Origin: Coriaria nepalensis
Lineage: Eukaryota; Streptophyta; Magnoliopsida; Cucurbitales; Coriariaceae
NCBI GenBank assembly: GCA_027186245.1
Contig: CP114487.1
Coordinates: 5,451,001 to 5,515,000 of the forward strand
DNA length: 64,000 nucleotides
Direction of reading: 5' to 3'
Positions 12,132-42,689 of the stretch are shown here, in pieces. The notes beneath the pieces are model-generated. The model had not been told where the DNA came from. It made no database searches and was given only the letters and a program-made list of their open reading frames with translations. Position numbers and translations under genes: made by a program. How positions within the stretch are numbered: position 1 is the first letter of the stretch; the number at the start of each line of letters is the position of its first letter.

Positions 12132-13078
12132 CAACTTGAAGAAATGCCCGCATGCCCTAAGAATCCCAATAGCAAGATGTGCATGAAACTCATGTTTGAA
12201 GTGCGAAAATAGAAAATGTTCGATTTGCTTTCAAATGATTTACCGATATAGGGTGACTCAATGTGACATGATTTTGAACTTGAACATTGCACACGTGTAC
12301 CAAAAAGATCATTAGCAAGTTGTGCATGAAATCCATAATTGAAATGCGAAAACAGAATTTGTTCGAATTGCTTCTAAATGATTTATTGACTTGAGATGGC
12401 CCATTGACATGATTTTGAATTTGAACAAATTTACACATCGGTTAAAATGGGCATTAGCAAGTTATGCGTGAAACTCATGTTTGAAGTCCAAAATAGAATT
12501 CATTCGAATTGCTCCTAAATGATTTACTAATTTGAGTAGGCTCGTTGACGTGATTTTGAATTTGAACAAATGCACACGTGCACCAAAACGATTATTTACA
12601 AGTTGTGCATGAAACTCTTAATTGAAATGCGAAAATAGAATTCGTTCGAATTCCTTCCAAATTCTTTATTGAGTTAAGGTGACACATTCACATGATTTTG
12701 AACATGTACAAAGCGGCACACATGCGTTAAAATGTCCATTAGCGAGTTGTGCGTGAAACTCATATTTGAACTGCGAAAATAGAATTCATTCGAATTGCTT
12801 CCAACTGATTTATTGACTTGAGGTGACTCACTGACATGATTCTGAACTTGAACTAATACACACGTGTTACAATGGCCTATAACAAGATGTGCATGAAACT
12901 CATGTATGAAGTGCAAAATAAAATTCGTTCCAGTTGCTTCCAAATGATTTTATTGACATGAGATGACTTCATTGACTTTATTTTGAATTCGAACAGTTGC
13001 ACACATGCGTTAAAATGGGCATTAGCAAATTGCTTCAAAATGATTTACTGACTTGAGATGACTCGTTGACATGATTTT
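12132..13078. repeat. Shortened HOR unit (A variant, 947 bp)
   Basis: A-type a-f are complete. Most of g and the first half of h are missing through a 191 bp deletion whose junction is at 13026-13032. The b monomer keeps GCGAAAACAG and TTGTTCG, unlike later A units. Confidence 0.92.
13026..13032. other. 191 bp deletion junction with 7 bp microhomology
   Basis: The junction reads TTAGCAAATTGCTTCAAAATG. In the intact copy, CAAATTG occurs at 3932-3938 (monomer g) and 4123-4129 (monomer h), exactly 191 bp apart. One CAAATTG and the DNA between were lost here, so microhomology of 7 bp spans the breakpoint. Confidence 0.9.
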
Positions 13079-14216
13079 CAACTTGAAGAAATGCCCGCAT
13101 GCCCTAAGAATCCCAATAGCAAGATGTGCATGAAACTCATGTTTGAAGTGCGAAAATAGAAAATGTTCGATTTGCTTTCAAATGATTTATTAATATAGGG
13201 TGACTCAATGAGACATGATTTTGAACTTGAACATTGCACACGTGCACCAAAAAGATCATTAGCAAGTTGTGCATGAAATCCATAATTGAAATGCGAAAAC
13301 AGAATTTTTCGAATTGCTTCTAAATGATTTATTGACTTGAGATGACCTATTGTCATGATTTTAAATTTGAACAAATTTACACATCGGTTAAAATGGGCAT
13401 TAGCAAGTTATGCGTGAAACTCATGTTTGAAGTCCAAAATAAAATTCATTTTAATTGCTCCTAAGTGATTTACTAATTTGAGGTGACTCGTTGACGTGAT
13501 TTTGAATTTGAACAAATGCACAGGTGCACCAAAACGATTATTTGCAAGTTGTGCATGAAACTCTTAATTGAAATGCAAAAATACAATTCGTTCGAATTCC
13601 TTCCAAATTCTTTATTGAGTTAAGGTGACACATTCACATGATTTTGAACATGTACAAAGCGGCACACATGCGTTAAAATGGCCATTAGCGAGTTGTGCGT
13701 GAAACTCATATTTGAACTGCGAAAATAGAATTCATTCGAATTGCTTTTAATTGATTTATTGACTTGAGGTGACTCACTGACATGATTCTGAACTTGAACT
13801 AATGCACACATGTGTTACAATGGCCTATAGCAAGATGTGCATGAAACTCATGTATGAAGTGCAAAATAAAATTCGTTCGAGTTGCTTCCAAATGATTTTA
13901 TTGACTTGAGATGACTTCATTGACTTTAGTTTGAACTCGAACAGTTGCACACATACGTTAAAATGGGCATTAGCAAATTGTGCATGAAACTCAAGTTTAA
14001 AGTGTGAAAATAGAATTCGTTCGGATTGCATCTAAATGATTTATTGATTTAATGTGACTTATTGACAAGATTTTGAGTTTGAACAAATGCAGACGTGCAC
14101 CGAAAGAGATCATTAGCATGTTGTGCATGAAACTCATAGTTAAAATACATAAATAGAATTTGTTCGAATTGCTCCAAATGATTTACTGACTTGAGATGAC
14201 TCGTTGACATGATTTT
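13079..14216. repeat. 8-mer HOR unit (B variant, 1138 bp)
   Basis: Complete a-h with the B marker set (TTATTAATATAGG, CAGAATTTTTCG, TTCATTTTAATTGC). Confidence 0.93.
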
Positions 14217-15343
14217 CAACTTGAAGAAATGCCTGCATGCCCTAAGAATCCCAATAGCAAGATGTGCATGAAACTCATGTTTGAAGTGCGAAAATAGAAA
14301 ATGTTCGATTTATTGATATAGGGTGACTCAATGTGACATGATTTTGAACTTGAACATTGCACACGTGCACCAAAAAGATCATTAGCAAGTTGTGCATGAA
14401 ATCCATAATTGAAATGCCAAAAAAAGAACTTGTTCGAATTGCTTCTCAATGATTTATTGACTTGAGATGGCCCATTGACATGATTTTGAATTTGAACAAA
14501 TTTACACATGGGTTAAAATGGGCATTAGCAAGTTATGCATGAAACACATGTTTGAAGTCCAAAATAGAATTCATTCGAATTGCACCTAAATGATTTACTA
14601 ATTTGAGGTGACTCGTTGACGTGATTTTGAATTTGAACAAATGCACACGTGCACCAAAACGATTATTTGCAAGTTGTGCATGAAACTCTTAATTGAAATG
14701 CGAAAATAGAATTCGTTCGAATTCCTTCCAAATTCTTTATTGAGTTAAGGGACACATTCACATGATTTTGAACATGTACAAAGAGGCACACATGCGTTAG
14801 AATGGCCATTCGCGAGTTGTGCGTGAAACTCATATTTGAACTGCGAAAATAGAATTCATTCGAATTGCTTCTAATTGATTTATTGACTTGAGGTGACTCA
14901 TTGACATGATTCTGAACTTGAACTAATGCACACGTGTTACAATGGCCTATAGCAGGATGTGCATGAAACTCATGTATGAAGTGCAAAGTAAAATTCGTTC
15001 GAGTTGCTTCCAAATGATTTTATTGACTTGAGATAACTTCATTGACTTTATTTTGAACTCGAACAGTTGCACACATGCGTTAAAATGGGCATTAGCAAAT
15101 TGTGCATGAAACTCATGTTTAAAGTGTGAAAATAGAATTCGTTCGGATTGCATCTAAATGATTTATTGATTTAATGTGACTCATTGACATGATTTTGAGT
15201 TTGACAAAATGCGGACGTGCACCGAAAGAGATCATTAGCACGTTGTGCATGAAACTCATAGTTAAAATACATAAATAGCTATAATTTGTTCGAATTGCTT
15301 CCAAATGATTTACTGACTTGAGATGACTCGTTGACAAGATTTT
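14217..15343. repeat. 8-mer HOR unit (C variant, 1127 bp)
   Basis: Complete a-h with the 15 bp deletion in a and the CTAT insertion in h. The b monomer has AAAGAACTTGTTCG, the early form of C. Confidence 0.93.
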
Positions 15344-16483
15344 CAACTTGAAGAAACGCCCGCATGCCTTAAGAATCCCAATAGCAAGATGTGCATGAAA
15401 CTCATGTTTGAAGTACGAAAATAGAAAATGTTCGATTTGCTTTCAAATCATTTATTGATATAGGGTGACTCAATGTGACATGATTTTGAACTTGAACATT
15501 GCACACGTGCACCAAAAAGGTCATTAGCAAGTTGTGCATGAAATCCATAATTGAAATGCGAAAACAGAATTTGTTCGAATTGCTTCTAAATGATTTATTG
15601 ACTTGAGATGGCCCATTGACATGATTTTGAATTTGAACAAATTTACACATGGGTTAAAATGGGCATTAGCAAGTTATGCGTGAAACTCATGTTTGAAGTC
15701 CAAAATAGAATTCATTCGAATTGCTCCTAAATGATTTACTAATTTGAGGTGACACGTTGACGTGATTTTGAATTTGAAAAAATGCGCACGTGCACCAAAA
15801 CGATTATTTGCAAGTTGTGCGTGAAACTCTTAATTGAAATGCGAAAATAGAATTCGTTTGAATTGCTTCCAAATTCTTTATTGAGTTAAGGTGACACATT
15901 CACATGATTTTGAACATGTACAAAGCGGCACACATGCGTTAAAATGGCCATTAGCGAGTTGTAAATGAAACTCAAATTTGAACTGCGAAAATAGAATTCA
16001 TTCGAATTGCTTCTAATTGATTTATTGACTTGAGGTGACTCATTGACATGATTCTGAACTTGAACTAATGCACACATGTGTTACAATGGCCTATAGCAAG
16101 ATGTGCATGAAACTCATGTATGAAGTGCAAAGTAAAATTCGTTCGAGTTGCTTCCAAATGATTTTATTGACTTGAGATGACTTTATTGACTTTATTTTGA
16201 ACTCGAACAGTTGCACACATGCGTTAAAATGGGCATTAGCAAATTGTGCATGAAACTCATGTTTGAAGTGTCAAAATAGAATACGTTCGGATTGCATCTA
16301 AATGATTTATTGATTTAATGTGACTTATTGACATGATTTTGAGTTTGAACAAATGCAGACATGCACCGAAAGAGATCATTAGCACGTTGTGCTTGAAACT
16401 CATAGTTAAAATACATAAATAGAATTTGTTCGAATTGCTTCAAAATGATTTACTGACTTGAGATGACTCGTTGACATGATTTT
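15344..16483. repeat. 8-mer HOR unit (D variant, 1140 bp)
   Basis: Complete a-h. D markers are GAAACGCCCGCATGCC and CAAATCATTTATTG in a, AAAAAGGTCATTAGC in b, GAAAAAATGCGCACG in d, and GAGTTGTAAATGAAACTC in e. GGTGACACGTTG in c is the early D form. Confidence 0.93.
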
Positions 16484-17621
16484 CAACTTGAAGAAATGCC
16501 CGCATGCCCTAAGAATCCCAATAGCAAGATGTGCATGAAACTCATGTTTGAAGTGCGAAAATAGAAAATGGTCGATTTGCTTTCAAATGATTTACCGATA
16601 TAGGGTGACTCAATGTGACATGATTTTGAACTAGAACATTGCACACGTGTACCAAAAAGATCATTAGCAAGTTGTGCATGAAATCCATAATTGAAATGCG
16701 ACAACAGAATTTGTTGGAATTGCTTCGAAATGATTTATTGACTTGAGATGGCCCATTGACATGATTTTGAATTTGAACAAATTTACACATCGGTTAAAAT
16801 GGGCATTAGCAAGTTATGCGTGAAACTCATGTTTGAAGTCCAAAATAGAATTCATTCGAATTGCTCCTAAATGATTTACTAATTTGAGTAGGCTCGTTGA
16901 CGTGATTTTGAATTTGAACAAATGCACACGTGCACCAAAACGATTATTTACAAGTTGTGCATGAAACTCTTAATTGAAATGCGAAAACAGAATTCGTTCG
17001 AATTCCTTCCAAATTCTTTATTGAGTTAAGGTGACACATTCACATGATTTTGAACATGTACAAAGCGGCACACATGCGTTAAAATGTCCATTAGCGAGTT
17101 GTGCGTGAAACTCATATTTGAACTGCGAAAATAGAATTCATTCGAATTGCTTCCAACTGATTTATTGACTTGAGGTGACTCACTGACATGATTCTGAACT
17201 TGAACTAATACACACGTGTTACAATGGCCTATAACAAGATGTGCATGAAACTCATGTATGAAGTGCAAAATAAAATTCGTTCCAGTTGCTTCCAAATGAT
17301 TTTATTGACATGAGATGACTTCATTGACTTTATTTTGAATTCGAACAGTTGCACACATGCGTTAAAATGGGCATTAGCAAATTGTGCATGAAACTCATGT
17401 TTGAAGTGTCAAAATAGAATACGTTCGGATTACATCTAATTGATTTATTGATTTAATGTGACTCATTGACAAGATTTTGAGTTTGAACAAATGCAGACGT
17501 GCACCAAAAGAGATCATTAGCACGTTGTGCATGAAACTCATAGTTAAAATACATATATAGAATTTGTTCAAATTGCTTCAAAATGATTTACTGACTTGAG
17601 ATGACTCGTTGACATGATTTT
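16484..17621. repeat. HOR unit (A variant, 1138 bp)
   Basis: A markers TTTACCGATATAGG, GACAACAG and GAGTAGGCTCG are present. New markers not in the A at 12132 are AAAATGGTCG in a and GAACTAGAAC at the b start. Confidence 0.93.
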
Positions 17622-18759
17622 CAACTTGAAGAAATGCCCGCATGCCCTAAGAATCCCAATAGCAAGATGTGCATGAAACTCATGTTTGAAGTGCGAAAAT
17701 AGAAAATGTTCGATTTGCTTTCAAATGATTTATTAATATAGGGTGACTCAATGAGACATGATTTTGAACTTGAACATTGCACACGTGCACCAAAAAGATC
17801 ATTAGCAAGTTGTGCATGAAATCCATAATTGAAATGCGAAAACAGAATTTTTCGAATTGCTTCTAAATGATTTATTGACTTGAGATGACCTATTGTCATG
17901 ATTTTAAATTTGAACAAATTTACACATCGGTTAAAATGGGCATTAGCAAGTTATGCGTGAAACTCATGTTTGAAGTCCAAAATAAAATTCATTTTAATTG
18001 CTCCTAAGTGATTTACTAATTTGAGGTGACTCGTTGACGTGATTTTGAATTTGAACAAATGCACAGGTGCACCAAAACGATTATTTGCAAGTTGTGCATG
18101 AAACTCTTAATTGAAATGCAAAAATACAATTCGTTCGAATTCCTTCCAAATTCTTTATTGAGTTAAGGTGACACATTCACATGATTTTGAACATGTACAA
18201 AGCGGCACACATGCGTTAAAATGGCCATTAGCGAGTTGTGCGTGAAACTCATATTTGAACTGCGAAAATAGAATTCATTCGAATTGCTTTTAATTGATTT
18301 ATTGACTTGAGGTGACTCACTGACATGATTCTGAACTTGAACTAATGCACACATGTGTTACAATGGCCTATAGCAAGATGTGCATGAAACTCATGTATGA
18401 AGTGCAAAATAAAATTCGTTCGAGTTGCTTCCAAATGATTTTATTGACTTGAGATGACTTCATTGACTTTAGTTTGAACTCGAACAGTTGCACACATACG
18501 TTAAAATGGGCATTAGCAAATTGTGCATGAAACTCAAGTTTAAAGTGTGAAAATAGAATTCGTTCGGATTGCATCTAAATGATTTATTGATTTAATGTGA
18601 CTTATTGACAAGATTTTGAGTTTGAACAAATGCAGACGTGCACCGAAAGAGATCATTAGCATGTTGTGCATGAAACTCATAGTTAAAATACATAAATAGA
18701 ATTTGTTCGAATTGCTCCAAATGATTTACTGACTTGAGATGACTCGTTGACATGATTTT
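17622..18759. repeat. HOR unit (B variant, 1138 bp)
   Basis: Complete a-h with the full B marker set. The h just before it reads CACCAAAAGAG, a mark of the early super-HOR copies. Confidence 0.93.
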
Positions 18760-19886
18760 CAACTTGAAGAAATGCCTGCATGCCCTAAGAATCCCAATAG
18801 CAAGATGTGCATGAAACTCATGTTTGAAGTGCGAAAATAGAAAATGTTCGATTTATTGATATAGGGTGACTCAATGTGACATGATTTTGAACTTGAACAT
18901 TGCACACGTGCACCAAAAAGATCATTAGCAAGTTGTGCATGAAATCCATAATTGAAATGCCAAAAAAAGAACTTGTTCGAATTGCTTCTCAATGATTTAT
19001 TGACTTGAGATGGCCCATTGACATGATTTTGAATTTGAACAAATTTACACATGGGTTAAAATGGGCATTAGCAAGTTATGCATGAAACACATGTTTGAAG
19101 TCCAAAATAGAATTCATTCGAATTGCACCTAAATGATTTACTAATTTGAGGTGACTCGTTGACGTGATTTTGAATTTGAACAAATGCACACGTGCACCAA
19201 AACGATTATTTGCAAGTTGTGCATGAAACTCTTAATTGAAATGCGAAAATAGAATTCGTTCGAATTCCTTCCAAATTCTTTATTGAGTTAAGGGACACAT
19301 TCACATGATTTTGAACATGTACAAAGAGGCACACATGCGTTAGAATGGCCATTCGCGAGTTGTGCGTGAAACTCATATTTGAACTGCGAAAATAGAATTC
19401 ATTCGAATTGCTTCTAATTGATTTATTGACTTGAGGTGACTCATTGACATGATTCTGAACTTGAACTAATGCACACGTGTTACAATGGCCTATAGCAGGA
19501 TGTGCATGAAACTCATGTATGAAGTGCAAAGTAAAATTCGTTCGAGTTGCTTCCAAATGATTTTATTGACTTGAGATAACTTCATTGACTTTATTTTGAA
19601 CTCGAACAGTTGCACACATGCGTTAAAATGGGCATTAGCAAATTGTGCATGAAACTCATGTTTAAAGTGTGAAAATAGAATTCGTTCGGATTGCATCTAA
19701 ATGATTTATTGATTTAATGTGACTCATTGACATGATTTTGAGTTTGACAAAATGCGGACGTGCACCGAAAGAGATCATTAGCACGTTGTGCATGAAACTC
19801 ATAGTTAAAATACATAAATAGCTATAATTTGTTCGAATTGCTTCCAAATGATTTACTGACTTGAGATGACTCGTTGACAAGATTTT
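18760..19886. repeat. HOR unit (C variant, 1127 bp)
   Basis: Complete a-h with the C deletion in a and CTAT insertion in h; b has AAAGAACTTG. Confidence 0.93.
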
Positions 19887-21026
19887 CAACTTGAAGAAAC
19901 GCCCGCATGCCTTAAGAATCCCAATAGCAAGATGTGCATGAAACTCATGTTTGAAGTACGAAAATAGAAAATGTTCGATTTGCTTTCAAATCATTTATTG
20001 ATATAGGGTGACTCAATGTGACATGATTTTGAACTTGAACATTGCACACGTGCACCAAAAAGGTCATTAGCAAGTTGTGCATGAAATCCATAATTGAAAT
20101 GCGAAAACAGAATTTGTTCGAATTGCTTCTAAATGATTTATTGACTTGAGATGGCCCATTGACATGATTTTGAATTTGAACAAATTTACACATGGGTTAA
20201 AATGGGCATTAGCAAGTTATGCGTGAAACTCATGTTTGAAGTCCAAAATAGAATTCATTCGAATTGCTCCTAAATGATTTACTAATTTGAGGTGACACGT
20301 TGACGTGATTTTGAATTTGAAAAAATGCGCACGTGCACCAAAACGATTATTTGCAAGTTGTGCGTGAAACTCTTAATTGAAATGCGAAAATAGAATTCGT
20401 TTGAATTGCTTCCAAATTCTTTATTGAGTTAAGGTGACACATTCACATGATTTTGAACATGTACAAAGCGGCACACATGCGTTAAAATGGCCATTAGCGA
20501 GTTGTAAATGAAACTCAAATTTGAACTGCGAAAATAGAATTCATTCGAATTGCTTCTAATTGATTTATTGACTTGAGGTGACTCATTGACATGATTCTGA
20601 ACTTGAACTAATGCACACATGTGTTACAATGGCCTATAGCAAGATGTGCATGAAACTCATGTATGAAGTGCAAAGTAAAATTCGTTCGAGTTGCTTCCAA
20701 ATGATTTTATTGACTTGAGATGACTTTATTGACTTTATTTTGAACTCGAACAGTTGCACACATGCGTTAAAATGGGCATTAGCAAATTGTGCATGAAACT
20801 CATGTTTGAAGTGTCAAAATAGAATACGTTCGGATTGCATCTAAATGATTTATTGATTTAATGTGACTTATTGACATGATTTTGAGTTTGAACAAATGCA
20901 GACATGCACCGAAAGAGATCATTAGCACGTTGTGCTTGAAACTCATAGTTAAAATACATAAATAGAATTTGTTCGAATTGCTTCAAAATGATTTACTGAC
21001 TTGAGATGACTCGTTGACATGATTTT
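19887..21026. repeat. HOR unit (D variant, 1140 bp)
   Basis: Complete a-h with D markers; GGTGACACGTTG in c and GACTTTATTGAC in f are the early D forms. Confidence 0.93.
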
Positions 21027-24000
21027 CAACTTGAAGAAATGCCCGCATGCCCTAAGAATCCCAATAGCAAGATGTGCATGAAACTCATGTTTGAAGTGCG
21101 AAAATAGAAAATGGTCGATTTGCTTTCAAATGATTTACCGATATAGGGTGACTCAATGTGACATGATTTTGAACTAGAACATTGCACACGTGTACCAAAA
21201 AGATCATTAGCAAGTTGTGCATGAAATCCATAATTGAAATGCGACAACAGAATTTGTTGGAATTGCTTCGAAATGATTTATTGACTTGAGATGGCCCATT
21301 GACATGATTTTGAATTTGAACAAATTTACACATCGGTTAAAATGGGCATTAGCAAGTTATGCGTGAAACTCATGTTTGAAGTCCAAAATAGAATTCATTC
21401 GAATTGCTCCTAAATGATTTACTAATTTGAGTAGGCTCGTTGACGTGATTTTGAATTTGAACAAATGCACACGTGCACCAAAACGATTATTTACAAGTTG
21501 TGCATGAAACTCTTAATTGAAATGCGAAAATAGAATTCGTTCGAATTCCTTCCAAATTCTTTATTGAGTTAAGGTGACACATTCACATGATTTTGAACAT
21601 GTACAAAGCGGCACACATGCGTTAAAATGTCCATTAGCGAGTTGTGCGTGAAACTCATATTTGAACTGCGAAAATAGAATTCATTCGAATTGCTTCCAAC
21701 TGATTTATTGACTTGAGGTGACTCACTGACATGATTCTGAACTTGAACTAATACACACGTGTTACAATGGCCTATAACAAGATGTGCATGAAACTCATGT
21801 ATGAAGTGCAAAATAAAATTCGTTCCAGTTGCTTCCAAATGATTTTATTGACATGAGATGACTTCATTGACTTTATTTTGAATTCGAACAGTTGCACACA
21901 TGCGTTAAAATGGGCATTAGCAAATTGTGCATGAAACTCATGTTTGAAGTGTCAAAATAGAATACGTTCGGATTACATCTAATTGATTTATTGATTTAAT
22001 GTGACTCATTGACAAGATTTTGAGTTTGAACAAATGCAGACGTGCACCAAAAGAGATCATTAGCACGTTGTGCATGAAACTCATAGTTAAAATACATATA
22101 TAGAATTTGTTCAAATTGCTTCAAAATGATTTACTGACTTGAGATGACTCGTTGACATGATTTTCAACTTGAAGAAATGCCCGCATGCCCTAAGAATCCC
22201 AATAGCAAGATGTGCATGAAACTCATGTTTGAAGTGCGAAAATAGAAAATGTTCGATTTGCTTTCAAATGATTTATTAATATAGGGTGACTCAATGAGAC
22301 ATGATTTTGAACTTGAACATTGCACACGTGCACCAAAAAGATCATTAGCAAGTTGTGCATGAAATCCATAATTGAAATGCGAAAACAGAATTTTTCGAAT
22401 TGCTTCTAAATGATTTATTGACTTGAGATGACCTATTGTCATGATTTTAAATTTGAACAAATTTACACATCGGTTAAAATGGGCATTAGCAAGTTATGCG
22501 TGAAACTCATGTTTGAAGTCCAAAATAAAATTCATTTTAATTGCTCCTAAGTGATTTACTAATTTGAGGTGACTCGTTGACGTGATTTTGAATTTGAACA
22601 AATGCACAGGTGCACCAAAACGATTATTTGCAAGTTGTGCATGAAACTCTTAATTGAAATGCAAAAATACAATTCGTTCGAATTCCTTCCAAATTCTTTA
22701 TTGAGTTAAGGTGACACATTCACATGATTTTGAACATGTACAAAGCGGCACACATGCGTTAAAATGGCCATTAGCGAGTTGTGCGTGAAACTCATATTTG
22801 AACTGCGAAAATAGAATTCATTCGAATTGCTTTTAATTGATTTATTGACTTGAGGTGACTCACTGACATGATTCTGAACTTGAACTAATGCACACATGTG
22901 TTACAATGGCCTATAGCAAGATGTGCATGAAACTCATGTATGAAGTGCAAAATAAAATTCGTTCGAGTTGCTTCCAAATGATTTTATTGACTTGAGATGA
23001 CTTCATTGACTTTAGTTTGAACTCGAACAGTTGCACACATACGTTAAAATGGGCATTAGCAAATTGTGCATGAAACTCAAGTTTAAAGTGTGAAAATAGA
23101 ATTCGTTCGGATTGCATCTAAATGATTTATTGATTTAATGTGACTTATTGACAAGATTTTGAGTTTGAACAAATGCAGACGTGCACCGAAAGAGATCATT
23201 AGCATGTTGTGCATGAAACTCATAGTTAAAATACATAAATAGAATTTGTTCGAATTGCTCCAAATGATTTACTGACTTGAGATGACTCGTTGACATGATT
23301 TTCAACTTGAAGAAATGCCTGCATGCCCTAAGAATCCCAATAGCAAGATGTGCATGAAACTCATGTTTGAAGTGCGAAAATAGAAAATGTTCGATTTATT
23401 GATATAGGGTGACTCAATGTGACATGATTTTGAACTTGAACATTGCACACGTGCACCAAAAAGATCATTAGCAAGTTGTGCATGAAATCCATAATTGAAA
23501 TGCCAAAAAAAGAACTTGTTCGAATTGCTTCTCAATGATTTATTGACTTGAGATGGCCCATTGACATGATTTTGAATTTGAACAAATTTACACATGGGTT
23601 AAAATGGGCATTAGCAAGTTATGCATGAAACACATGTTTGAAGTCCAAAATAGAATTCATTCGAATTGCACCTAAATGATTTACTAATTTGAGGTGACTC
23701 GTTGACGTGATTTTGAATTTGAACAAATGCACACGTGCACCAAAACGATTATTTGCAAGTTGTGCATGAAACTCTTAATTGAAATGCGAAAATAGAATTC
23801 GTTCGAATTCCTTCCAAATTCTTTATTGAGTTAAGGGACACATTCACATGATTTTGAACATGTACAAAGAGGCACACATGCGTTAGAATGGCCATTCGCG
23901 AGTTGTGCGTGAAACTCATATTTGAACTGCGAAAATAGAATTCATTCGAATTGCTTCTAATTGATTTATTGACTTGAGGTGACTCATTGACATGATTCTG

Positions 24001-30112: not shown

Positions 30113-32388
30113 CAACTTGAAAAAATGCCCGCATGCCCTAAGAATCCCAATAGCAAGATGTGCATGAAACTCATGTTTGAAGTGCGAAAATAGAAAATGG
30201 TCGATTTGCTTTCAAATGATTTACCGATATAGGGTGACTCAATGTGACATGATTTTGAACTTGAACATTGCACACGTGTACCAAAAAGATCATTAGCAAG
30301 TTGTGCATGAAATCCATAATTGAAATGCGACAACAGAATTTGTTGGAATTGCTTCGAAATGATTTATTGACTTGAGATGGCCCATTGACATGATTTTGAA
30401 TTTGAACAAATTTACACATCGGTTAAAATGGGCATTAGCAAGTTATGCGTGAAACTCATGTTTGAAGTCCAAAATAGAATTCATTCGAATTGCTCCTAAA
30501 TGATTTACTAATTTGAGTAGGCTCGTTGACGTGATTTTGAATTTGAACAAATGCACACGTGCACCAAAACGATTATTTACAAGTTGTGCATGAAACTCTT
30601 AATTGAAATGCGAAAATAGAATTCGTTCGAATTCCTTCCAAATTCTTTATTGAGTTAAGGTGACACATTCACATGATTTTGAACATGTACAAAGCGGCAC
30701 ACATGCGTTAAAATGTCCATTAGCGAGTTGTGCGTGAAACTCATATTTGAACTGCGAAAATAGAATTCATTCGAATTGCTTCCAACTGATTTATTGACTT
30801 GAGGTGACTCACTGACATGATTCTGAACTTGAACTAATACACACGTGTTACAATGGCCTATAACAAGATGTGCATGAAACTCATGTATGAAGTGCAAAAT
30901 AAAATTCGTTCCAGTTGCTTCCAAATGATTTTATTGACATGAGATGACTTCATTGACTTTATTTTGAATTCGAACAGTTGCACACATGCGTTAAAATGGG
31001 CATTAGCAAATTGTGCATGAAACTCATGTTTGAAGTGTCAAAATAGAATACGTTCGGATTACATCTAATTGATTTATTGATTTAATGTGACTCATTGACA
31101 AGATTTTGAGTTTGAACAAATGCAGACGTGCACCAAAAGAGATCATTAGCACGTTGTGCATGAAACTCATAGTTAAAATACATATATAGAATTTGTTCAA
31201 ATTGCTTCAAAATGATTTACTGACTTGAGATGACTCGTTGACATGATTTTCAACTTGAAGAAATGCCCGCATGCCCTAAGAATCCCAATAGCAAGATGTG
31301 CATGAAACTCATGTTTGAAGTGCGAAAATAGAAAATGTTCGATTTGCTTTCAAATGATTTATTAATATAGGGTGACTCAATGAGACATGATTTTGAACTT
31401 GAACATTGCACACGTGCACCAAAAAGATCATTAGCAAGTTGTGCATGAAATCCATAATTGAAATGCGAAAACAGAATTTTTCGAATTGCTTCTAAATGAT
31501 TTATTGACTTGAGATGACCTATTGTCATGATTTTAAATTTGAACAAATTTACACATCGGTTAAAATGGGCATTAGCAAGTTATGCGTGAAACTCATGTTT
31601 GAAGTCCAAAATAAAATTCATTTTAATTGCTCCTAAGTGATTTACTAATTTGAGGTGACTCGTTGACGTGATTTTGAATTTGAACAAATGCACAGGTGCA
31701 CCAAAACGATTATTTGCAAGTTGTGCATGAAACTCTTAATTGAAATGCAAAAATACAATTCGTTCGAATTCCTTCCAAATTCTTTATTGAGTTAAGGTGA
31801 CACATTCACATGATTTTGAACATGTACAAAGCGGCACACATGCGTTAAAATGGCCATTAGCGAGTTGTGCGTGAAACTCATATTTGAACTGTGAAAATAG
31901 AATTCATTCGAATTGCTTTTAATTGATTTATTGACTTGAGGTGACTCACTGACATGATTCTGAACTTGAACTAATGCACACATGTGTTACAATGGCCTAT
32001 AGCAAGATGTGCATGAAACTCATGTATGAAGTGCAAAATAAAATTCGTTCGAGTTGCTTCCAAATGATTTTATTGACTTGAGATGACTTCATTGACTTTA
32101 GTTTGAACTCGAACAGTTGCACACATACGTTAAAATGGGCATTAGCAAATTGTGCATGAAACTCAAGTTTAAAGTGTGAAAATAGAATTCGTTCGGATTG
32201 CATCTAAATGATTTATTGATTTAATGTGACTTATTGACAAGATTTTGAGTTTGAACAAATGCAGACGTGCACCGAAAGAGATCATTAGCATGTTGTGCAT
32301 GAAACTCATAGTTAAAATACATAAATAGAATTTGTTCGAATTGCTCCAAATGATTTACTGACTTGAGATGACTCGTTGACATGATTTT
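30113..32388. repeat. Super-HOR copy 5, truncated (A, B; 2276 bp)
   Basis: HOR units A 30113-31250 and B 31251-32388, followed directly by an A-like unit instead of C and D. A has GAACTTGAAC (later form) but its g retains TCTAATTGATT and its h CACCAAAAGAG (early forms). Confidence 0.92.
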
Positions 32389-33526
32389 CAACTTGAAGAA
32401 ATGCCTGCATGCCCTAAGAATCCCAATAGCAAGATGTGCATGAAACTCATGTTTGAAGTGCGAAAATAGAAAATGGTCGATTTGCTTTCAAATGATTTAC
32501 CGATATAGGGTGACTCAATGTGACATGATTTTGAACTTGAACATTGCACACGTGTACCAAAAAGATCATTAGCAAGTTGTGCATGAAATCCATAATTGAA
32601 ATGCGACAACAGAATTTGTTGGAATTGCTTCGAAATGATTTATTGACTTGAGATGGCCCATTGACATGATTTTGAATTTGAACAAATTTACACATCGGTT
32701 AAAATGGGCATTAGCAAGTTATGCGTGAAACTCATGTTTGAAGTCCAAAATAGAATTCATTCGAATTGCTCCTAAATGATTTACTAATTTGAGTAGGCTC
32801 GTTGACGTGATTTTGAATTTGAACAAATGCACACGTGCACCAAAACGATTATTTACAAGTTGTGCATGAAACTCTTAATTGAAATGCGAAAATAGAATTC
32901 GTTCGAATTCCTTCCAAATTCTTTATTGAGTTAAGGTGACACATTCACATGATTTTGAACATGTACAAAGCGGCACACATGCGTTAAAATGTCCATTAGC
33001 GAGTTGTGCGTGAAACTCATATTTGAACTGCGAAAATAGAATTCATTCGAATTGCTTCCAACTGATTTATTGACTTGAGGTGACTCACTGACATGATTCT
33101 GAACTTGAACTAATACACACGTGTTACAATGGCCTATAACAAGATGTGCATGAAACTCATGTATGAAGTGCAAAATAAAATTCGTTCCAGTTGCTTCCAA
33201 ATGATTTTATTGACATGAGATGACTTCATTGACTTTATTTTGAATTCGAACAGTTGCACACATGCGTTAAAATGGGCATTAGCAAATTGTGCATGAAACT
33301 CATGTTTGAAGTGTCAAAATAGAATACGTTCGGATTACATCTAAATGATTTATTGATTTAATGTGACTCATTGACAAGATTTTGAGTTTGAACAAATGCA
33401 GACGTGCACCGAAAGAGATCATTAGCACGTTGTGCATGAAACTCATAGTTAAAATACATATATAGAATTTGTTCAAATTGCTTCAAAATGATTTACTGAC
33501 TTGAGATGACTCGTTGACATGATTTT
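32389..33526. repeat. C/A recombinant HOR unit (1138 bp)
   Basis: The a monomer begins with the C marker CCTGCATGCC (about 32404) and reads the A marker AAAATGGTCG by about 32475, with A sequence thereafter. The exchange lies in 32406-32475 inside monomer a. Length is the normal A length, so pairing was exactly in register and 2,267 bp (the rest of C and all of D) are absent. Confidence 0.9.
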
Positions 33527-36500
33527 CAACTTGAAGAAATGCCCGCATGCCCTAAGAATCCCAATAGCAAGATGTGCATGAAACTCATGTTTGAAGTGCG
33601 AAAATAGAAAATGTTCGATTTGCTTTCAAATGATTTATTAATATAGGGTGACTCAATGAGACATGATTTTGAACTTGAACATTGCACACGTGCACCAAAA
33701 AGATCATTAGCAAGTTGTGCATGAAATCCATAATTGAAATGCGAAAACAGAATTTTTCGAATTGCTTCTAAATGATTTATTGACTTGAGATGACCTATTG
33801 TCATGATTTTAAATTTGAACAAATTTACACATTGGTTAAAATGGGCATTAGCAAGTTATGCGTGAAACTCATGTTTGAAGTCCAAAATAAAATTCATTTT
33901 AATTGCTCCTAAGTGATTTACTAATTTGAGGTGACTCGTTGACGTGATTTTGAATTTGAACAAATGCACAGGTGCACCAAAACGATTATTTGCAAGTTGT
34001 GCATGAAACTCTTAATTGAAATGCAAAAATACAATTCGTTCGAATTCCTTCCAAATTCTTTATTGAGTTAAGGTGACTCATTCACATGATTTTGAACATG
34101 TACAAAGCGGCACACATGCGTTAAAATGGCCATTAGCGAGTTGTGCGTGAAACTCATATTTGAACTGCGAAAATAGAATTCATTCGAATTGCTTTTAATT
34201 GATTTATTGACTTGAGGTGACTCACTGACATGATTCTGAACTTGAACTAATGCACACATGTGTTACAATGGCCTATAGCAAGATGTGCATGAAACTCATG
34301 TATGAAGTGCAAAATAAAATTCGTTCGAGTTGCTTCCAAATGATTTTATTGACTTGAGATGACTTCATTGACTTTAGTTTGAACTCGAACAGTTGCACAC
34401 ATACGTTAAAATGGGCATTAGCAAATTGTGCATGAAACTCAAGTTTAAAGTGTGAAAATAGAATTCGTTCGGATTGCATCTAAATGATTTATTGATTTAA
34501 TGTGACTTATTGACAAGATTTTGAGTTTGAACAAATGCAGACGTGCACCGAAAGAGATCATTAGCATGTTGTGCATGAAACTCATAGTTAAAATACATAA
34601 ATAGAATTTGTTCGAATTGCTCCAAATGATTTACTGACTTGAGATGACTCGTTGACAAGATTTTCAACTTGAAGAAATGCCTGCATGCCCTAAGAATCCC
34701 AATAGCAAGATGTGCATGAAACTCATGTTTGAAGTGCGAAAATAGAAAATGTTCGATTTATTGATATAGGGTGACTCAATGTGACATGATTTTGAACTTG
34801 AACATTGCACACGTGCACCAAAAAGATCATTAGCAAGTTGTGCATGAAATCCATAATTGAAATGCCAAAAAAAGAATTTGTTCGAATTGCTTCTCAATGA
34901 TTTATTGACTTGAGATGGCCCATTGACATGATTTTGAATTTGAACAAATTTACACATGGGTTAAAATGGGCATTAGCAAGTTATGCATGAAACACATGTT
35001 TGAAGTCCAAAATAGAATTCATTCGAATTGCACCTAAATGATTTACTAATTTGAGGTGACTCGTTGACGTGATTTTGAATTTGAACAAATGCACACGTGC
35101 ACCAAAACGATTATTTGCAAGTTGTGCATGAAACTCTTAATTGAAATGCGAAAATAGAATTCGTTCGAATTCCTTCCAAATTCTTTATTGAGTTAAGGGA
35201 CACATTCACATGATTTTGAACATGTACAAAGAGGCACACATGCGTTAGAATGGCCATTCGCGAGTTGTGCGTGAAACTCATATTTGAACTGCGAAAATAG
35301 AATTCATTCGAATTGCTTCTAATTGATTTATTGACTTGAGGTGACTCATTGACATGATTCTGAACTTGAACTAATGCACACGTGTTACAATGGCCTATAG
35401 CAAGATGTGCATGAAACTCATGTATGAAGTGCAAAGTAAAATTCGTTCGAGTTGCTTCCAAATGATTTTATTGACTTGAGATAACTTCATTGACTTTATT
35501 TTGAACTCGAACAGTTGCACACATGCGTTAAAATGGGCATTAGCAAATTGTGCATGAAACTCATGTTTAAAGTGTGAAAATAGAATTCGTTCGGATTGCA
35601 TCTAAATGATTTATTGATTTAATGTGACTCATTGACATGATTTTGAGTTTGACAAAATGCGGACGTGCACCGAAAGAGATCATTAGCACGTTGTGCATGA
35701 AACTCATAGTTAAAATACATAAATAGCTATAATTTGTTCGAATTGCTTCCAAATGATTTACTGACTTGAGATGACTCGTTGACAAGATTTTCAACTTGAA
35801 GAAACGCCCGCATGCCTTAAGAATCCCAATAGCAAGATGTGCATGAAACTCATGTTTGAAGTACGAAAATAGAAAATGTTCGATTTGCTTTCAAATCATT
35901 TATTGATATAGGGTGACTCAATGTGACATGATTTTGAACTTGAACATTGCACACGTGCACCAAAAAGGTCATTAGCAAGTTGTGCATGAAATCCATAATT
36001 GAAATGCGAAAACAGAATTTGTTCGAATTGCTTCTAAATGATTTATTGACTTGAGATGGCCCATTGACATGATTTTGAATTTGAACAAATTTACACATGG
36101 GTTAAAATGGGCATTAGCAAGTTATGCGTGAAACTCATGTTTGAAGTCCAAAATAGAATTCATTCGAATTGCTCCTAAATGATTTACTAATTTGAGGTGA
36201 CTCGTTGACGTGATTTTGAATTTGAAAAAATGCGCACGTGCACCAAAACGATTATTTGCAAGTTGTGCGTGAAACTCTTAATGGAAATGCGAAAATAGGA
36301 TTCGTTCGAATTGCTTCCAAATTCTTTATTAAGTTAAGGTGACACATTCACATGATTTTGAACATGTACAAAGCGGCACACATGCGTTAAAATGGCCATT
36401 AGCGAGTTGTAAATGAAACTCAAATTTGAACTGCGAAAATAGAATTCATTCGAATTGCTTCTAATTGATTTATTGACTTGAGGTGACTCATTGACATGAT

Positions 36501-36931
36501 TCTGAACTTGAACTAATGCACACATGTGTTACAATGGCCTATAGCAAGATGTGCATGAAACTCATGTATGAAGTGCAAAGTAAAATTCGTTCGAGTTGCT
36601 TCCAAATGATTTTATTGACTTGAGATGACTTCATTGACTTTATTTTGAACTCGAACAGTTGCACACATGCGTTAAAATGGGCATTAGCAAATTGTGCATG
36701 AAACTCATGTTTGAAGTGTCAAAATAGAATACGTTCGGATTGCATCTAAATGATTTATTGATTTAATGTGACTTATTGACATGATTTTGAGTTTGAACAA
36801 ATGCAGACATGCACCGAAAGAGATCATTAGCACGTTGTGCTTGAAACTCATAGTTAAAATACATAAATAGAATTTGTTCGAATTGCTTCAAAATGATTTA
36901 CTGACTTGAGATGACTCGTTGACATGATTTT
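32389..36931. repeat. Super-HOR copy 6 (C/A hybrid, B, C, D; 4543 bp)
   Basis: Units C/A 32389-33526, B 33527-34664, C 34665-35791, D 35792-36931. Later variants are present: CACCGAAAGAG before B, GGTGACTCATTC in B monomer d (near 34077), AAAGAATTTG in C monomer b. D has AATGGAAATGC and TTATTAAGTTAAGG near 36280-36340. Confidence 0.93.
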
Positions 36932-39900
36932 CAACTTGAAGAAATGCCCGCATGCCCTAAGAATCCCAATAGCAAGATGTGCATGAAACTCATGTTTGAA
37001 GTGCGAAAATAGAAAATGGTCGATTTGCTTTCAAATGATTTACCGATATAGGGTGACTCAATGTGACATGATTTTGAACTTGAACATTGCACACGTGTAC
37101 CAAAAAGATCATTAGCAAGTTGTGCATGAAATCCATAATTGAAATGCGACAACAGAATTTGTTGGAATTGCTTCGAAATGATTTATTGACTTGAGATGGC
37201 CCATTGACATGATTTTGAATTTGAACAAATTTACACATCGGTTAAAATGGGCATTAGCAAGTTATGCGTGAAACTCATGTTTGAAGTCCAAAATAGAATT
37301 CATTCGAATTGCTCCTAAATGATTTACTAATTTGAGTAGGCTCGTTGACGTGATTTTGAATTTGAACAAATGCACACGTGCACCAAAACGATTATTTACA
37401 AGTTGTGCATGAAACTCTTAATTGAAATGCGAAAATAGAATTCGTTCGAATTCCTTCCAAATTCTTTATTGAGTTAAGGTGACACATTCACATGATTTTG
37501 AACATGTACAAAGCGGCACACATGCGTTAAAATGTCCATTAGCGAGTTGTGCGTGAAACTCATATTTGAACTGCGAAAATAGAATTCATTCGAATTGCTT
37601 CCAACTGATTTATTGACTTGAGGTGACTCACTGACATGATTCTGAACTTGAACTAATACACACGTGTTACAATGGCCTATAACAAGATGTGCATGAAACT
37701 CATGTATGAAGTGCAAAATAAAATTCGTTCCAGTTGCTTCCAAATGATTTTATTGACATGAGATGACTTCATTGACTTTATTTTGAATTCGAACAGTTGC
37801 ACACATGCGTTAAAATGGGCATTAGCAAATTGTGCATGAAACTCATGTTTGAAGTGTCAAAATAGAATACGTTCGGATTACATCTAAATGATTTATTGAT
37901 TTAATGTGACTCATTGACAAGATTTTGAGTTTGAACAAATGCAGACGTGCACCGAAAGAGATCATTAGCACGTTGTGCATGAAACTCATAGTTAAAATAC
38001 ATATATAGAATTTGTTCAAATTGCTTCAAAATGATTTACTGACTTGAGATGACTCGTTGACATGATTTTCAACTTGAAGAAATGCCCGCATGCCCTAAGA
38101 ATCCCAATAGCAAGATGTGCATGAAACTCATGTTTGAAGTGCGAAAATAGAAAATGTTCGATTTGCTTTCAAATGATTTATTAATATAGGGTGACTCAAT
38201 GAGACATGATTTTGAACTTGAACATTGCACACGTGCACCAAAAAGATCATTAGCAAGTTGTGCATGAAATCCATAATTGAAATGCGAAAACAGAATTTTT
38301 CGAATTGCTTCTAAATGATTTATTGACTTGAGATGACCTATTGTCATGATTTTAAATTTGAACAAATTTACACATTGGTTAAAATGGGCATTAGCAAGTT
38401 ATGCGTGAAACTCATGTTTGAAGTCCAAAATAAAATTCATTTTAATTGCTCCTAAGTGATTTACTAATTTGAGGTGACTCGTTGACGTGATTTTGAATTT
38501 GAACAAATGCACAGGTGCACCAAAACGATTATTTGCAAGTTGTGCATGAAACTCTTAATTGAAATGCAAAAATACAATTCGTTCGAATTCCTTCCAAATT
38601 CTTTATTGAGTTAAGGTGACTCATTCACATGATTTTGAACATGTACAAAGCGGCACACATGCGTTAAAATGGCCATTAGCGAGTTGTGCGTGAAACTCAT
38701 ATTTGAACTGCGAAAATAGAATTCATTCGAATTGCTTTTAATTGATTTATTGACTTGAGGTGACTCACTGACATGATTCTGAACTTGAACTAATGCACAC
38801 ATGTGTTACAATGGCCTATAGCAAGATGTGCATGAAACTCATGTATGAAGTGCAAAATAAAATTCGTTCGAGTTGCTTCCAAATGATTTTATTGACTTGA
38901 GATGACTTCATTGACTTTAGTTTGAACTCGAACAGTTGCACACATACGTTAAAATGGGCATTAGCAAATTGTGCATGAAACTCAAGTTTAAAGTGTGAAA
39001 ATAGAATTCGTTCGGATTGCATCTAAATGATTTATTGATTTAATGTGACTTATTGACAAGATTTTGAGTTTGAACAAATGCAGACGTGCACCGAAAGAGA
39101 TCATTAGCATGTTGTGCATGAAACTCATAGTTAAAATACATAAATAGAATTTGTTCGAATTGCTCCAAATGATTTACTGACTTGAGATGACTCGTTGACA
39201 AGATTTTCAACTTGAAGAAATGCCTGCATGCCCTAAGAATCCCAATAGCAAGATGTGCATGAAACTCATGTTTGAAGTGCGAAAATAGAAAATGTTCGAT
39301 TTATTGATATAGGGTGACTCAATGTGACATGATTTTGAACTTGAACATTGCACACGTGCACCAAAAAGATCATTAGCAAGTTGTGCATGAAATCCATAAT
39401 TGAAATGCCAAAAAAAGAATTTGTTCGAATTGCTTCTCAATGATTTATTGACTTGAGATGGCCCATTGACATGATTTTGAATTTGAACAAATTTACACAT
39501 GGGTTAAAATGGGCATTAGCAAGTTATGCATGAAACACATGTTTGAAGTCCAAAATAGAATTCATTCGAATTGCACCTAAATGATTTACTAATTTGAGGT
39601 GACTCGTTGACGTGATTTTGAATTTGAACAAATGCACACGTGCACCTAAACGATTATTTGCAAGTTGTGCATGAAACTCTTAATTGAAATGCGAAAATAG
39701 AATTCGTTCGAATTCCTTCCAAATTCTTTATTGAGTTAAGGGACACATTCACATGATTTTGAACATGTACAAAGAGGCACACATGCGTTAGAATGGCCAT
39801 TCGCGAGTTGTGCGTGAAACTCATATTTGAACTGCGAAAATAGAATTCATTCGAATTGCTTCTAATTGATTTATTGACTTGAGGTGACTCATTGACATGA

Positions 39901-41474
39901 TTCTGAACTTGAACTAATGCACACGTGTTACAATGGCCTATAGCAAGATGTGCATGAAACTCATGTATGAAGTGCAAAGTAAAATTCGTTCGAGTTGCTT
40001 CCAAATGATTTTATTGACTTGAGATAACTTCATTGACTTTATTTTGAACTCGAACAGTTGCACACATGCGTTAAAATGGGCATTAGCAAATTGTGCATGA
40101 AACTCATGTTTAAAGTGTGAAAATAGAATTCGTTCGGATTGCATCTAAATGATTTATTGATTTAATGTGACTCATTGACATGATTTTGAGTTTGACAAAA
40201 TGCGGACGTGCACCGAAAGAGATCATTAGCACGTTGTGCATGAAACTCATAGTTAAAATACATAAATAGCTATAATTTGTTCGAATTGCTTCCAAATGAT
40301 TTACTGACTTGAGATGACTCGTTGACAAGATTTTCAACTTGAAGAAACGCCCGCATGCCTTAAGAATCCCAATAGCAAGATGTGCATGAAACTCATGTTT
40401 GAAGTACGAAAATAGAAAATGTTCGATTTGCTTTCAAATCATTTATTGATATAGGGTGACTCAATGTGACATGATTTTGAACTTGAACATTGCACACGTG
40501 CACCAAAAAGGTCATTAGCAAGTTGTGCATGAAATCCATAATTGAAATGCGAAAACAGAATTTGTTCGAATTGCTTCTAAATGATTTATTGACTTGAGAT
40601 GGCCCATTGACATGATTTTGAATTTGAACAAATTTACACATGGGTTAAAATGGGCATTAGCAAGTTATGCGTGAAACTCATGTTTGAAGTCCAAAATAGA
40701 ATTCATTCGAATTGCTCCTAAATGATTTACTAATTTGAGGTGACTCGTTGACGTGATTTTGAATTTGAAAAAATGCGCACGTGCACCAAAACGATTATTT
40801 GCAAGTTGTGCGTGAAACTCTTAATTGAAATGCGGAAATATGATTCGTTCGAATTGCTTCCAAATTCTTTATTAAGTTAAGGTGACACATTCACATGATT
40901 TTGAACATGTACAAAGCGGCACACATGCGTTAAAATGGCCATTAGCGAGTTGTAAATGAAACTCAAATTTGAACTGCGAAAATAGAATTCATTCGAATTG
41001 CTTCTAATTGATTTATTGACTTGAGGTGACTCATTGACATGATTCTGAACTTGAACTAATGCACACATGTGTTACAATGGCCTATAGCAAGATGTGCATG
41101 AAACTCATGTATGAAGTGCAAAGTAAAATTCGTTCGAGTTGCTTCCAAATGATTTTATTGACTTGAGATGACTTCATTGACTTTATTTTGAACTCGAACA
41201 GTTGCACACATGCGTTAAAATGGGCATTAGCAAATTGTGCATGAAACTCATGTTTGAAGTGTCAAAATAGAATACGTTCGGATTGCATCTAAATGATTTA
41301 TTGATTTAATGTGACTTATTGACATGATTTTGAGTTTGAACAAATGCAGACATGCACCGAAAGAGATCATTAGCACGTTGTGCTTGAAACTCATAGTTAA
41401 AATACATAAATAGAATTTGTTCGAATTGCTTCAAAATGATTTACTGACTTGAGATGACTCGTTGACATGATTTT
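36932..41474. repeat. Super-HOR copy 7 (ABCD, 4543 bp)
   Basis: Units A 36932-38069, B 38070-39207, C 39208-40334, D 40335-41474, sharing the later variants of copy 6, including GGTGACTCATTC in B (near 38620). D has GCGGAAATATGATTCG near 40834 as a private change. Confidence 0.94.
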
Positions 41475-42689
41475 CAACTTGAAGAAATGCCCGCATGCCC
41501 TAAGAATCCCAATAGCAAGATGTGCATGAAACTCATGTTTGAAGTGCGAAAATAGAAAATGGTCGATTTGCTTTCAAATGATTTACCGATATAGGGTGAC
41601 TCAATGTGACATGATTTTGAACTTGAACATTGCACACGTGTACCAAAAAGATCATTAGCAAGTTGTGCATGAAATCCATAATTGAAATGCGACAACAGAA
41701 TTTGTTGGAATTGCTTCGAAATGATTTATTGACTTGAGATGGCCCATTGACATGATTTTGAATTTGAACAAATTTACACATCGGTTAAAATGGGCATTAG
41801 CAAGTTATGCGTGAAACTCATGTTTGAAGTCCAAAATAGAATTCATTCGAATTGCTCCTAAATGATTTACTAATTTGAGTAGGCTCGTTGACGTGATTTT
41901 GAATTTGAACAAATGCACACGTGCACCAAAACGATTATTTACAAGTTGTGCATGAAACTCTTAATTGAAATGCGAAAATAGAATTCGTTCGAATTCCTTC
42001 CAAATTCTTTATTGAGTTAAGGTGACACATTCACATGATTTTGAACATGTACAAAGCGGCACACATGCGTTAAAATGTCCATTAGCGAGTTGTGCGTGAA
42101 ACTCATATTTGAACTGCGAAAATAGAATTCATTCGAATTGCTTCCAACTGATTTATTGACTTGAGGTGACTCACTGACATGATTCTGAACTTGAACTAAT
42201 ACACACGTGTTACAATGGCCTATAACAAGATGTGCATGAAACTCATGTATGAAGTGCAAAATAAAATTCGTTCCAGTTGCTTCCAAATGATTTTATTGAC
42301 ATGAGATGACTTCATTGACTTTATTTTGAATTCGAACAGTTGCACACATGCGTTAAAATGGGCATTAGCAAATTGTGCATGAAACTCATGTTTGAAGTGT
42401 CAAAATAGAATACGTTCGGATTACATCTAAATGATTTATTGATTTAATGTGACTCATTGACAAGATTTTGAGTTTGAACAAATGCAGACGTGCACCGAAA
42501 GAGATCATTAGCACGTTGTGCATGAAACTCATAGTTAAAATACATATATAGAATTTGTTCAAATTGCTTCAAAATGATTTACTGACTTGAGATGACTCGT
42601 TGACATGATTTTCAACTTGAAGAAATGCCCGCATGCCCTAAGAATCCCAATAGCAAGATGTGCATGAAACTCATGTTTGAAGTGCGAAA
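41475..42689. repeat. Super-HOR copy 8, truncated at array boundary
   Basis: Complete A unit (41475-42612) and the first ~77 bp of the B monomer a. At 42690 GCGAAAGTAG replaces GCGAAAATAG and sequence of the right-hand sub-family follows. The homogenised array ends here. Confidence 0.92.

What the first reader, a model, noticed from the sequence alone, without database searches (positions are those of the whole stretch)
12132..42689. Three-level nested satellite: 142 bp monomer, 1,138 bp 8-mer, 4,543 bp 32-mer
Seen: four 8-mer variants with constant marker indels (A 1138, B 1138, C 1127, D 1140) cycle in fixed order, and markers recur at exactly 4543 bp through most of 30 kb. Known: 8-mer-scale HORs are typical of centromeric satellites. 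A nested HOR in which the repeating unit is itself four HORs is less common and indicates a recent amplification of a multi-HOR block. Inference: this is the most recently homogenised part of a centromere-like array.
Basis: partly seen in the sequence, partly recalled or inferred. Interest (0 to 1): 0.75.

Follow-up and report, generated by a model that had tools for sequence, protein, structure and literature searches.

The report
Nested satellite repeat, probable plant centromere
A stretch of plant chromosome is built of a 142-base repeat grouped in eights, and the groups of eight are themselves repeated in fixed sets, a layout that looks like a young, still-growing centromere core; it is an unusually tidy example of a known kind of DNA.

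Summary
All 64 kb are one head-to-tail array of 451 monomers of about 142 bp, in eight classes ordered 1-8, about 1,138 bp. At window 13,026-42,689 four 8-mer variants cycle in fixed order with period 4,543 bp: 24 of 25 transitions fit, 0 of 20,000 shuffles do as well. Identity is 99.2% at four units, 96.1-96.2% at one to three. Two exceptions are recombination scars: a 96-bp hybrid monomer (12,933) and a hybrid 8-mer (32,197).

Samples show the array running about 260-280 kb near the middle of a 12.46-Mb contig, divergent at the edges and homogeneous inside. The family lies on at least 10 of 20 contigs, with a different HOR where checked. That is centromere-like, but CENH3 is untested and Salicaceae arrays mostly lie outside centromeres. 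The 4,543-bp block is not uniquely young: nearby lie a two-unit repeat (2,276 bp, six pairs) and a seven-unit duplication (7,810 bp). Best reading: a layered HOR array grown by out-of-step exchange in 8-mer register. New member of a known kind.

The parts
1..64000 (+). uninterrupted satellite array, 451 monomers of about 142 bp, eight classes (1-8) forming an 8-mer of about 1,138 bp; also a two-group (dimer-scale) level
1..13028 (+). left domain: 8-mers (units 0-10 compared) whose best match among core units is 97.5-100%, in other orders, several of them mosaics of A-D
6554..11779 (+). repeat of period 2,276 bp: 6,554-9,503 identical to 8,830-11,779 (2,950 bp, 0 mismatches)
12933..13028 (+). 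96-bp hybrid monomer, class 8 joined to class 2 out of register; AATTG shared at the join (read by eye)
13026..42689 (+). array of the 4,543-bp (32-monomer) block, order A-C-D-B
17429..21971 (+). full 4,543-bp copy K2
21972..26514 (+). full 4,543-bp copy K3 (1 difference from K2)
26515..31057 (+). full 4,543-bp copy K4
31058..33333 (+). shortened block K5, 2,276 bp (A plus hybrid unit)
32197..33333 (+). hybrid 8-mer: head of variant C, rest variant B; switch between 32,347 and 32,476
   Evidence: one search had painted it B with 7 mismatches
33334..37876 (+). full 4,543-bp copy K6
37877..42419 (+). full 4,543-bp copy K7
42690..64000 (+). older right domain: 8-mers on average 94.6% identical to the core, many rows missing classes
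47804..47976 (+). 173-bp odd monomer in the old right domain
55364..55526 (+). 163-bp odd monomer containing a 22-bp tandem duplication at 55,440-55,483

Best explanation
The window is the inner part of a single-orientation satellite array of about 260-280 kb near the middle of a plant chromosome, most likely that chromosome's centromere. The array grew in layers: monomer, dimer-like pair, 4-mer (seen at the left edge), 8-mer (most of the array), and finally groups of several 8-mers copied as one unit near the centre. Growth works by out-of-step homologous repair between sister copies (unequal crossover or break-induced replication). The partners pair in 8-mer register but slip by whole 8-mers, so fixed orders of variants are copied as blocks and older repeats are left outside. 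Shown: the levels, their order along the array, the blocks, the hybrid unit, the copy-to-copy differences. Inferred: the repair pathway, outward displacement in time, and CENH3 occupancy.
For: Levels and order. Array extent, from samples: no satellite at C7:5,315,001-5,316,200; satellite in every sample taken from 5,318,001 to 5,576,200; a LINE-like reverse transcriptase at 5,585,001; weak satellite at 5,593,001; none at 5,600,001. Layering: at the left edge lag-4 identity is 0.862 against 0.76-0.77 at lags 1-3; inside, lag 8 takes over. Slippage in 8-mer register: the C-to-B hybrid unit and the 24/25 cycle. Stepwise copying: 13 of 13 shared variable sites among five full copies separate neighbours from neighbours, 7 more are private; four equal-length 2,276-bp copies differ by 1, 2 and 3 bases with distance. 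Genome pattern: family seen on 10 of 20 contigs, on 7 of the 10 at 43-54% of contig length; 2,003-bp HOR on C3; D marker only on C7, 11 of 11 places.
Against: No CENH3, methylation or read data. On C1 (58 Mb) the family lies in at least four separated clusters, on C3 at 15-18% of the length, and on C4 the one listed place is at 34%; this fits one-per-centromere only if C1-C3 are joined or rearranged chromosomes. C4, C10 and C17 rest on one listed place each. The 4-mer layer was seen on the left only; the one 1.2-kb sample near the right end (L038) shows no 4-mer string. 9 of the 13 shared sites fall at the split made by the shortened block K5, so they may mark one event. No CENP-B-like box, and only a weak AA/TT correlation (0.11) at 10 bp. 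In Salicaceae most such arrays are non-centromeric.
Confidence: 0.65

Rival explanations
1. A homogenised satellite array of the same build that is not the kinetochore site, like the non-centromeric tandem arrays of poplars and willows.
For: PMC12046899 (abstract and passages): most Salicaceae arrays lie outside the centromeres yet are homogenised; array names give monomers of 145-180 bp. Several separated clusters on C1.
Against: Mid-contig position on 7 of the 10 contigs with listed places; on the contigs of 9-14 Mb the listed places of each contig lie within 0.3 Mb of each other (lists cut); divergent edges and homogeneous inside.
Confidence: 0.22
2. Assembly artefact: the 4,543-bp block was artificially multiplied or collapsed from fewer real copies.
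For: K2 and K3 differ at one site and stretches of 4-6.7 kb recur without a difference, so copy number rests on the assembler. Many contig lengths are multiples of 2,500, which suggests Hi-C scaffolding (inference).
Against: Five full copies carry 20 variable sites, 7 of them private, and a hybrid unit lies among them; the 4,543-bp spacing of the D marker recurs outside the window, C7:5,436,918 to 5,441,461.
Confidence: 0.08
3. The block was amplified at one stroke from an excised circle (rolling circle) and reinserted, rather than by stepwise exchange.
For: Blocks of different period lie near each other with sharp ends (42,689; 13,026).
Against: Differences among copies are arranged by neighbourhood (13 of 13 shared sites; 1-2-3 gradient in four 2,276-bp copies); the right end continues in 8-mer register into older repeats; the hybrid unit needs exchange inside the array.
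Confidence: 0.07

Closest known systems
Human alpha-satellite HOR arrays, e.g. chromosome 8 (PMC8099727, passages; PMC8997354, passages)
   Same: Monomer to HOR levels, chromosome-specific HORs, oldest and most divergent repeats at the edges, near-identical centre.
   Different: 142-bp plant monomer; array of about 0.27 Mb instead of 2.08 Mb; no CENP-B box found; groups of two, four and seven HORs near each other; layers not shown to be mirror-symmetric.
Cascading HORs and superHORs of primates (PMC12428378, abstract and passages)
   Same: Large unit in which monomer types recur inside the unit and copies are nearly alike (theirs 0.25% mean divergence for the 58mer; here 0.02-0.37% pairwise).
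   Different: Here the inner unit is a complete 8-mer repeated four times; 32 monomers; a plant.
Locally nested HORs (PMC11652271 and PMC10053651, passages)
   Same: Tandem amplification at more than one level in one array.
   Different: Those amplify a part inside a HOR; here whole HORs are grouped into a larger unit.
Palv156 and other Salicaceae arrays (PMC12046899, abstract and passages)
   Same: Plant satellites of similar monomer length with HORs; Palv156 lies mostly on one strand per centromere and is more alike within than between chromosomes.
   Different: Units made of several HORs are not mentioned in the passages that I saw; most of those arrays are outside centromeres; a flank protein argues against Salicaceae as the source.
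Arabidopsis and Papaver centromere HORs (PMC10053651, PMC11406182, passages)
   Same: Plant satellites with HORs (one Arabidopsis HOR has 8 monomers); a layered expansion is described in Papaver.
   Different: In Papaver and Arabidopsis HOR lengths follow a negative exponential distribution (PMC11406182); here one strict 8-mer rules most of the stretch read.

Membership tests
Higher-order-repeat satellite array | head-to-tail monomers in one orientation | tested here: met
   451 monomers aligned to a + strand consensus; C7 samples match on + only
Higher-order-repeat satellite array | distinct monomer classes in a fixed order, copies of the group far more alike than neighbouring monomers | tested here: met
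   identity 0.919 at lag 8 against 0.754 at lag 1; classes
Multi-HOR (nested, superHOR-like) array | a larger unit made of several HORs repeated in tandem | tested here: met
   identity 0.99 at lag 32 against 0.948-0.950 at lags 8, 16, 24; 24 of 25 transitions
Chromosome-specific HOR family | different HORs of one satellite family on different chromosomes | tested here: met
   2,003-bp HOR on C3, 4 of 4 copies identical in 8.5 kb; D marker 11 of 11 on C7; C3 and C5 consensus 86-87% identical to C7's; only C3, C5 and C7 were looked at
Layered centromere array | divergent repeats at the edges, homogeneous repeats inside | tested here: met
   best long match 81-86% at the left edge (5.32-5.36 Mb), 96.0-99.6% at 5.375-5.451 Mb, 90-97.5% at 5.515-5.566 Mb, 81% at 5.575 Mb; sampled, not read whole
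Functional centromere | CENH3 nucleosomes on the array | not testable with these tools
   no ChIP or CUT&Tag data
Functional centromere | one array per chromosome at the primary constriction | tested here: inconclusive
   10 of 20 contigs seen, lists cut, 10 untested; 7 of 10 mid-contig; C1 has at least four clusters
Grass CentC family | sequence homology to CentC and a grass source | tested here: not met
   best score 15 against shuffled mean 10.5, 3 of 200 shuffles as high, and on the other strand from the shared 13-mer AAACTCATGTTTG; a flank protein matches eudicots best
CENP-B-box satellite | TTCGNNNNANNCGGG | tested here: not met
   0 matches on both strands of the window

The most novel reading that the evidence does not exclude
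This is an active eudicot centromere caught in an escalation of repeat-unit length (about 2, 4, 8, then 16, 32 and 55 monomers), where rival groups of two, four and seven 8-mers drawn from one pool of 8-mer variants are expanding near each other. It would be a plant counterpart of alpha-satellite HOR evolution that arose independently.
Probability: 0.33. Interest if true: 0.62.

Novelty: new member of a known kind. Interest (0 to 1): 0.45.

Why it matters
Why HORs arise and grow is open. Here one 125-kb stretch holds units of two, four and (once duplicated) seven HORs made of partly the same labelled variants, with copy gradients, exact junctions and a hybrid unit. That makes the competing models (unequal crossover, break-induced replication, rolling circle) testable by simple counting in a plant, far from primates.

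Tried and rejected
Grass origin: the core AAACTCATGTTTG also occurs in maize CentC and Coix CentX (passages). The CentC consensus does not align well overall, and a flank protein matched eudicots best (553 hits, 120 listed; best named rows Turnera, Carya, Rubus, Cucurbita, 46-60% identity; monocots and Amborella appear lower). I dropped kinship with CentC.

Salicaceae origin, guessed from contig number and size: a second flank protein (43 hits) was only 32-33% identical to Salix, 35% to Vitis, 36% to Juglans; contig sizes do not fit 19 chromosomes simply. The species is not identified.

Kin elsewhere: 0 matches to one 26-place pattern in genome contigs and viral contigs, none in plasmids, no Rfam family at the gathering scores. 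Phages, E. coli genomes and metagenomes were not searched. Sequence words of the monomer in papers: one unrelated paper. HOR plus plant plus '142 bp': one human paper. Paper searches: in the listings and passages that I saw no plant case is described as a strict unit of several HORs, but plant papers in those lists (among them PMC10910784, PMC12933667, PMC10335936, PMC11524312) were not opened and subscription journals are mostly not held.

Own-genome search by the 1,139-base unit: answered, but candidates were not scored. Two searches for more contigs did not complete. (two mismatches) does not list the two exact C13 places, so the lists are incomplete even at 0 mismatches.

Nucleosome rhythm and CENP-B box: nothing convincing.

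Full report
WHAT IS THERE. The window is satellite from end to end: 451 monomers of about 142 bp aligned on the + strand. Monomers fall into eight classes (two odd monomers were assigned to the nearest class), and these into two groups, {1,3,5} and {2,4,6,7,8} (169 and 280 monomers at the 0.25 cut, two left single; the group membership follows from the class consensus table), so a dimer-like level precedes the 8-mer. Mean identity is 0.754 between neighbours and 0.919 at lag 8. 48 of 61 row segments are complete 8-mers.

THE THIRD LEVEL. In 13,026-42,689 four 8-mer variants follow A-C-D-B (my phase: 1,139 + 1,122 + 1,144 + 1,138 = 4,543 bp). Unit identity is 96.08, 96.21, 96.06 and 99.16% at lags of 1 to 4 units; monomer identity is 0.99 at lag 32 against 0.948-0.950 at lags 8, 16 and 24. 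Of 25 transitions 24 follow the cycle; 0 of 20,000 shuffles do as well, the best reaching 16 (the stretch was picked after seeing it). Five copies are complete and of equal length, one lacks about its first 140 bp, one is shortened to 2,276 bp, and a further 270 bp matches up to 42,689.

COPY DIFFERENCES. The five complete copies differ pairwise at 1-17 of 4,543 sites, 20 variable sites in all: 7 private and 13 shared. All 13 shared sites separate neighbours from neighbours, 9 at the split K2-K4 against K6-K7 (where the shortened block lies) and 4 at K2-K3 against the rest. Sites within one conversion tract are not independent, so I give no probability. The private sites and the hybrid unit argue against plain assembler copying, but the exact copy number still needs long reads.

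SCARS. Unit 32,197-33,333 starts as variant C and continues as B: of 56 informative positions the first five are C, 32,382 is B, 32,406 is C and all 49 from 32,476 on are B (a run of these positions, 32,484-32,501, looks like one indel). An earlier painting with a switching penalty had called it B with 7 mismatches. This is what an exchange in 8-mer register but out of 32-mer register leaves behind, and it makes the block 2,267 bp shorter. At 12,933-13,028 a 96-bp monomer joins class 8 to class 2, sharing AATTG at the join (read by eye).

AROUND THE WINDOW. Samples show satellite from between 5,316,201 and 5,318,001 to at least 5,576,200, then a LINE-like stretch (RVT_1 above its cut-off), then weak satellite (67-71%) and none at 5,600,001. 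The open frames tested within about 15 kb of the array ends (three) have no Pfam match above cut-off; a kinase-like frame lies about 108 kb left. I read 125 kb without a break (5,400,001-5,525,000). In one search the variant string reads q--PqRSBA-PqRSBAC-CXCXCXCXCXCXBACDBAC-CDBAbACZC-YbACZCXCXBaCDBACDBACDBACDBABACDBACDB, then units 4% or more away from every reference variant (two were too short to compare). Letters other than A-D were chosen from single units, so their own 0.0 values are by construction. So third-level repeats of three lengths lie in one array. Six 8-mers recur without a difference after 7,810 bp, once, the seventh differing by 1.25%. C-X pairs of about 2,276 bp occur six times in a row, of which four equal-length copies were compared base by base, 1-3 differences. 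The third is the 4,543-bp block.

LAYERS. At the left edge (C7:5,318,001-5,328,000) lag-4 identity is 0.862 against 0.76-0.77 at lags 1-3 and much of the class string is 5678 repeated; class assignment there is at 0.88 identity, so '5678' means nearest class. Nine exact core matches spaced 1,717 bp at 5,333,089-5,346,825 suggest a 12-mer built on the 4-mer. Further in, lag 8 dominates. On the right the one 1.2-kb sample near the end shows no 4-mer, so mirror symmetry is not shown. Right of 42,690 the 8-mers are older (median best match 97.62%, 17 units, against 99.91% of 53 left and 100.0% of 25 core units) and many rows lack classes.

GENOME PATTERN. A 25-base core occurs 286 times on + and 0 times on - in the genome, listed on C3, C5 and C7 before the list was cut. 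A C3/C5-type 42-mer is found exactly on C3, C5, C13 and C19, and with up to two mismatches also on C1, C4, C9, C10 and C17 (891 + and 514 - matches, list cut, and C13 missing from it). That makes 10 of 20 contigs; the other 10 are untested, not negative. Places lie at 43-54% of contig length on C5, C7, C9, C10, C13, C17 and C19 (one place each on C10 and C17, two on C13, three on C9). Against this, C4 has one place at 34%, C3 lies at 15-18%, and C1 (58 Mb) has places at 4.6-10.6, 28.6, 45.2-45.7 and 51.7-51.9 Mb. C1-C3 are about 2.4 to 6.5 times longer than the other contigs and may be joined chromosomes (inference). C3 carries a 2,003-bp HOR, 4 of 4 copies identical, which is either very young or assembler-made. 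The D marker occurs only on C7 (11 of 11 places).

SOURCE. One flank protein, spliced by eye, has its best named relatives in Turnera, Carya, Rubus and Cucurbita; another is at most 38% identical to anything listed with 60% coverage or more. I call the source a flowering plant, probably a eudicot, species unknown.

HOW IT PROBABLY WORKS. Shown: levels, register of the hybrid unit, neighbour-wise differences, sharp block ends, divergent edges. Inferred: out-of-step sister repair slips by whole 8-mers because pairing at 96% between variants is good enough, so runs of variants are copied as units; longer units spread near the centre; older repeats are left at the edges. The review PMC8997354 (passages) describes both unequal exchange and break-induced replication for HOR growth; the present data do not separate them. 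Kinetochore function is likely by analogy but untested; PMC12046899 (abstract and passages) is the warning case.

NOVELTY. Nested and very long HORs are known in primates (PMC12428378, PMC11652271, passages); plant HORs and layered expansion are known too (PMC10053651, PMC11406182, passages). My searches showed no plant case described as a strict unit of several HORs, but I saw listings and passages, not whole papers, and left several listed plant papers unopened. I therefore file it as a new member of a known kind, an unusually regular one.

Noticed in passing
L009 and L064 (C7:5,402,972-5,417,469): Six successive 8-mers (one lacking class 6; 6,688 bp) recur without a difference after 7,810 bp; the seventh differs by 1.25%.
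   Followed up: partly
L064-L066 (C7:5,419,736-5,433,395): Six tandem pairs of 8-mers (C-X, about 2,276 bp); four equal-length copies differ by 1-3 bases in a distance gradient.
   Followed up: partly
L062 (C3:5,970,001-5,978,500): Contig C3 has a 2,003-bp HOR of the same satellite family with 4 of 4 copies identical; either very recent or an assembly effect.
   Followed up: partly
C7:5,333,089-5,346,849: A 25-base core recurs nine times at exactly 1,717 bp near the left edge, suggesting a 12-mer built on the older 4-mer.
   Followed up: no
L039 (C7:5,585,001-5,586,200): LINE-like reverse transcriptase fragment near the right end of the array, with weak satellite beyond it.
   Followed up: partly
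C1 (58.4 Mb): At least four separated clusters of the satellite on the longest contig; it may be several chromosomes joined or have several arrays.
   Followed up: no
window 55440-55483: A perfect 22-bp tandem duplication inside one monomer of the old right domain.
   Followed up: no
L017 (C7:5,900,001-5,910,000): An open frame that looks like an oxidosqualene (triterpene) cyclase fragment, recognised from memory only, lies about 300 kb right of the array.
   Followed up: no
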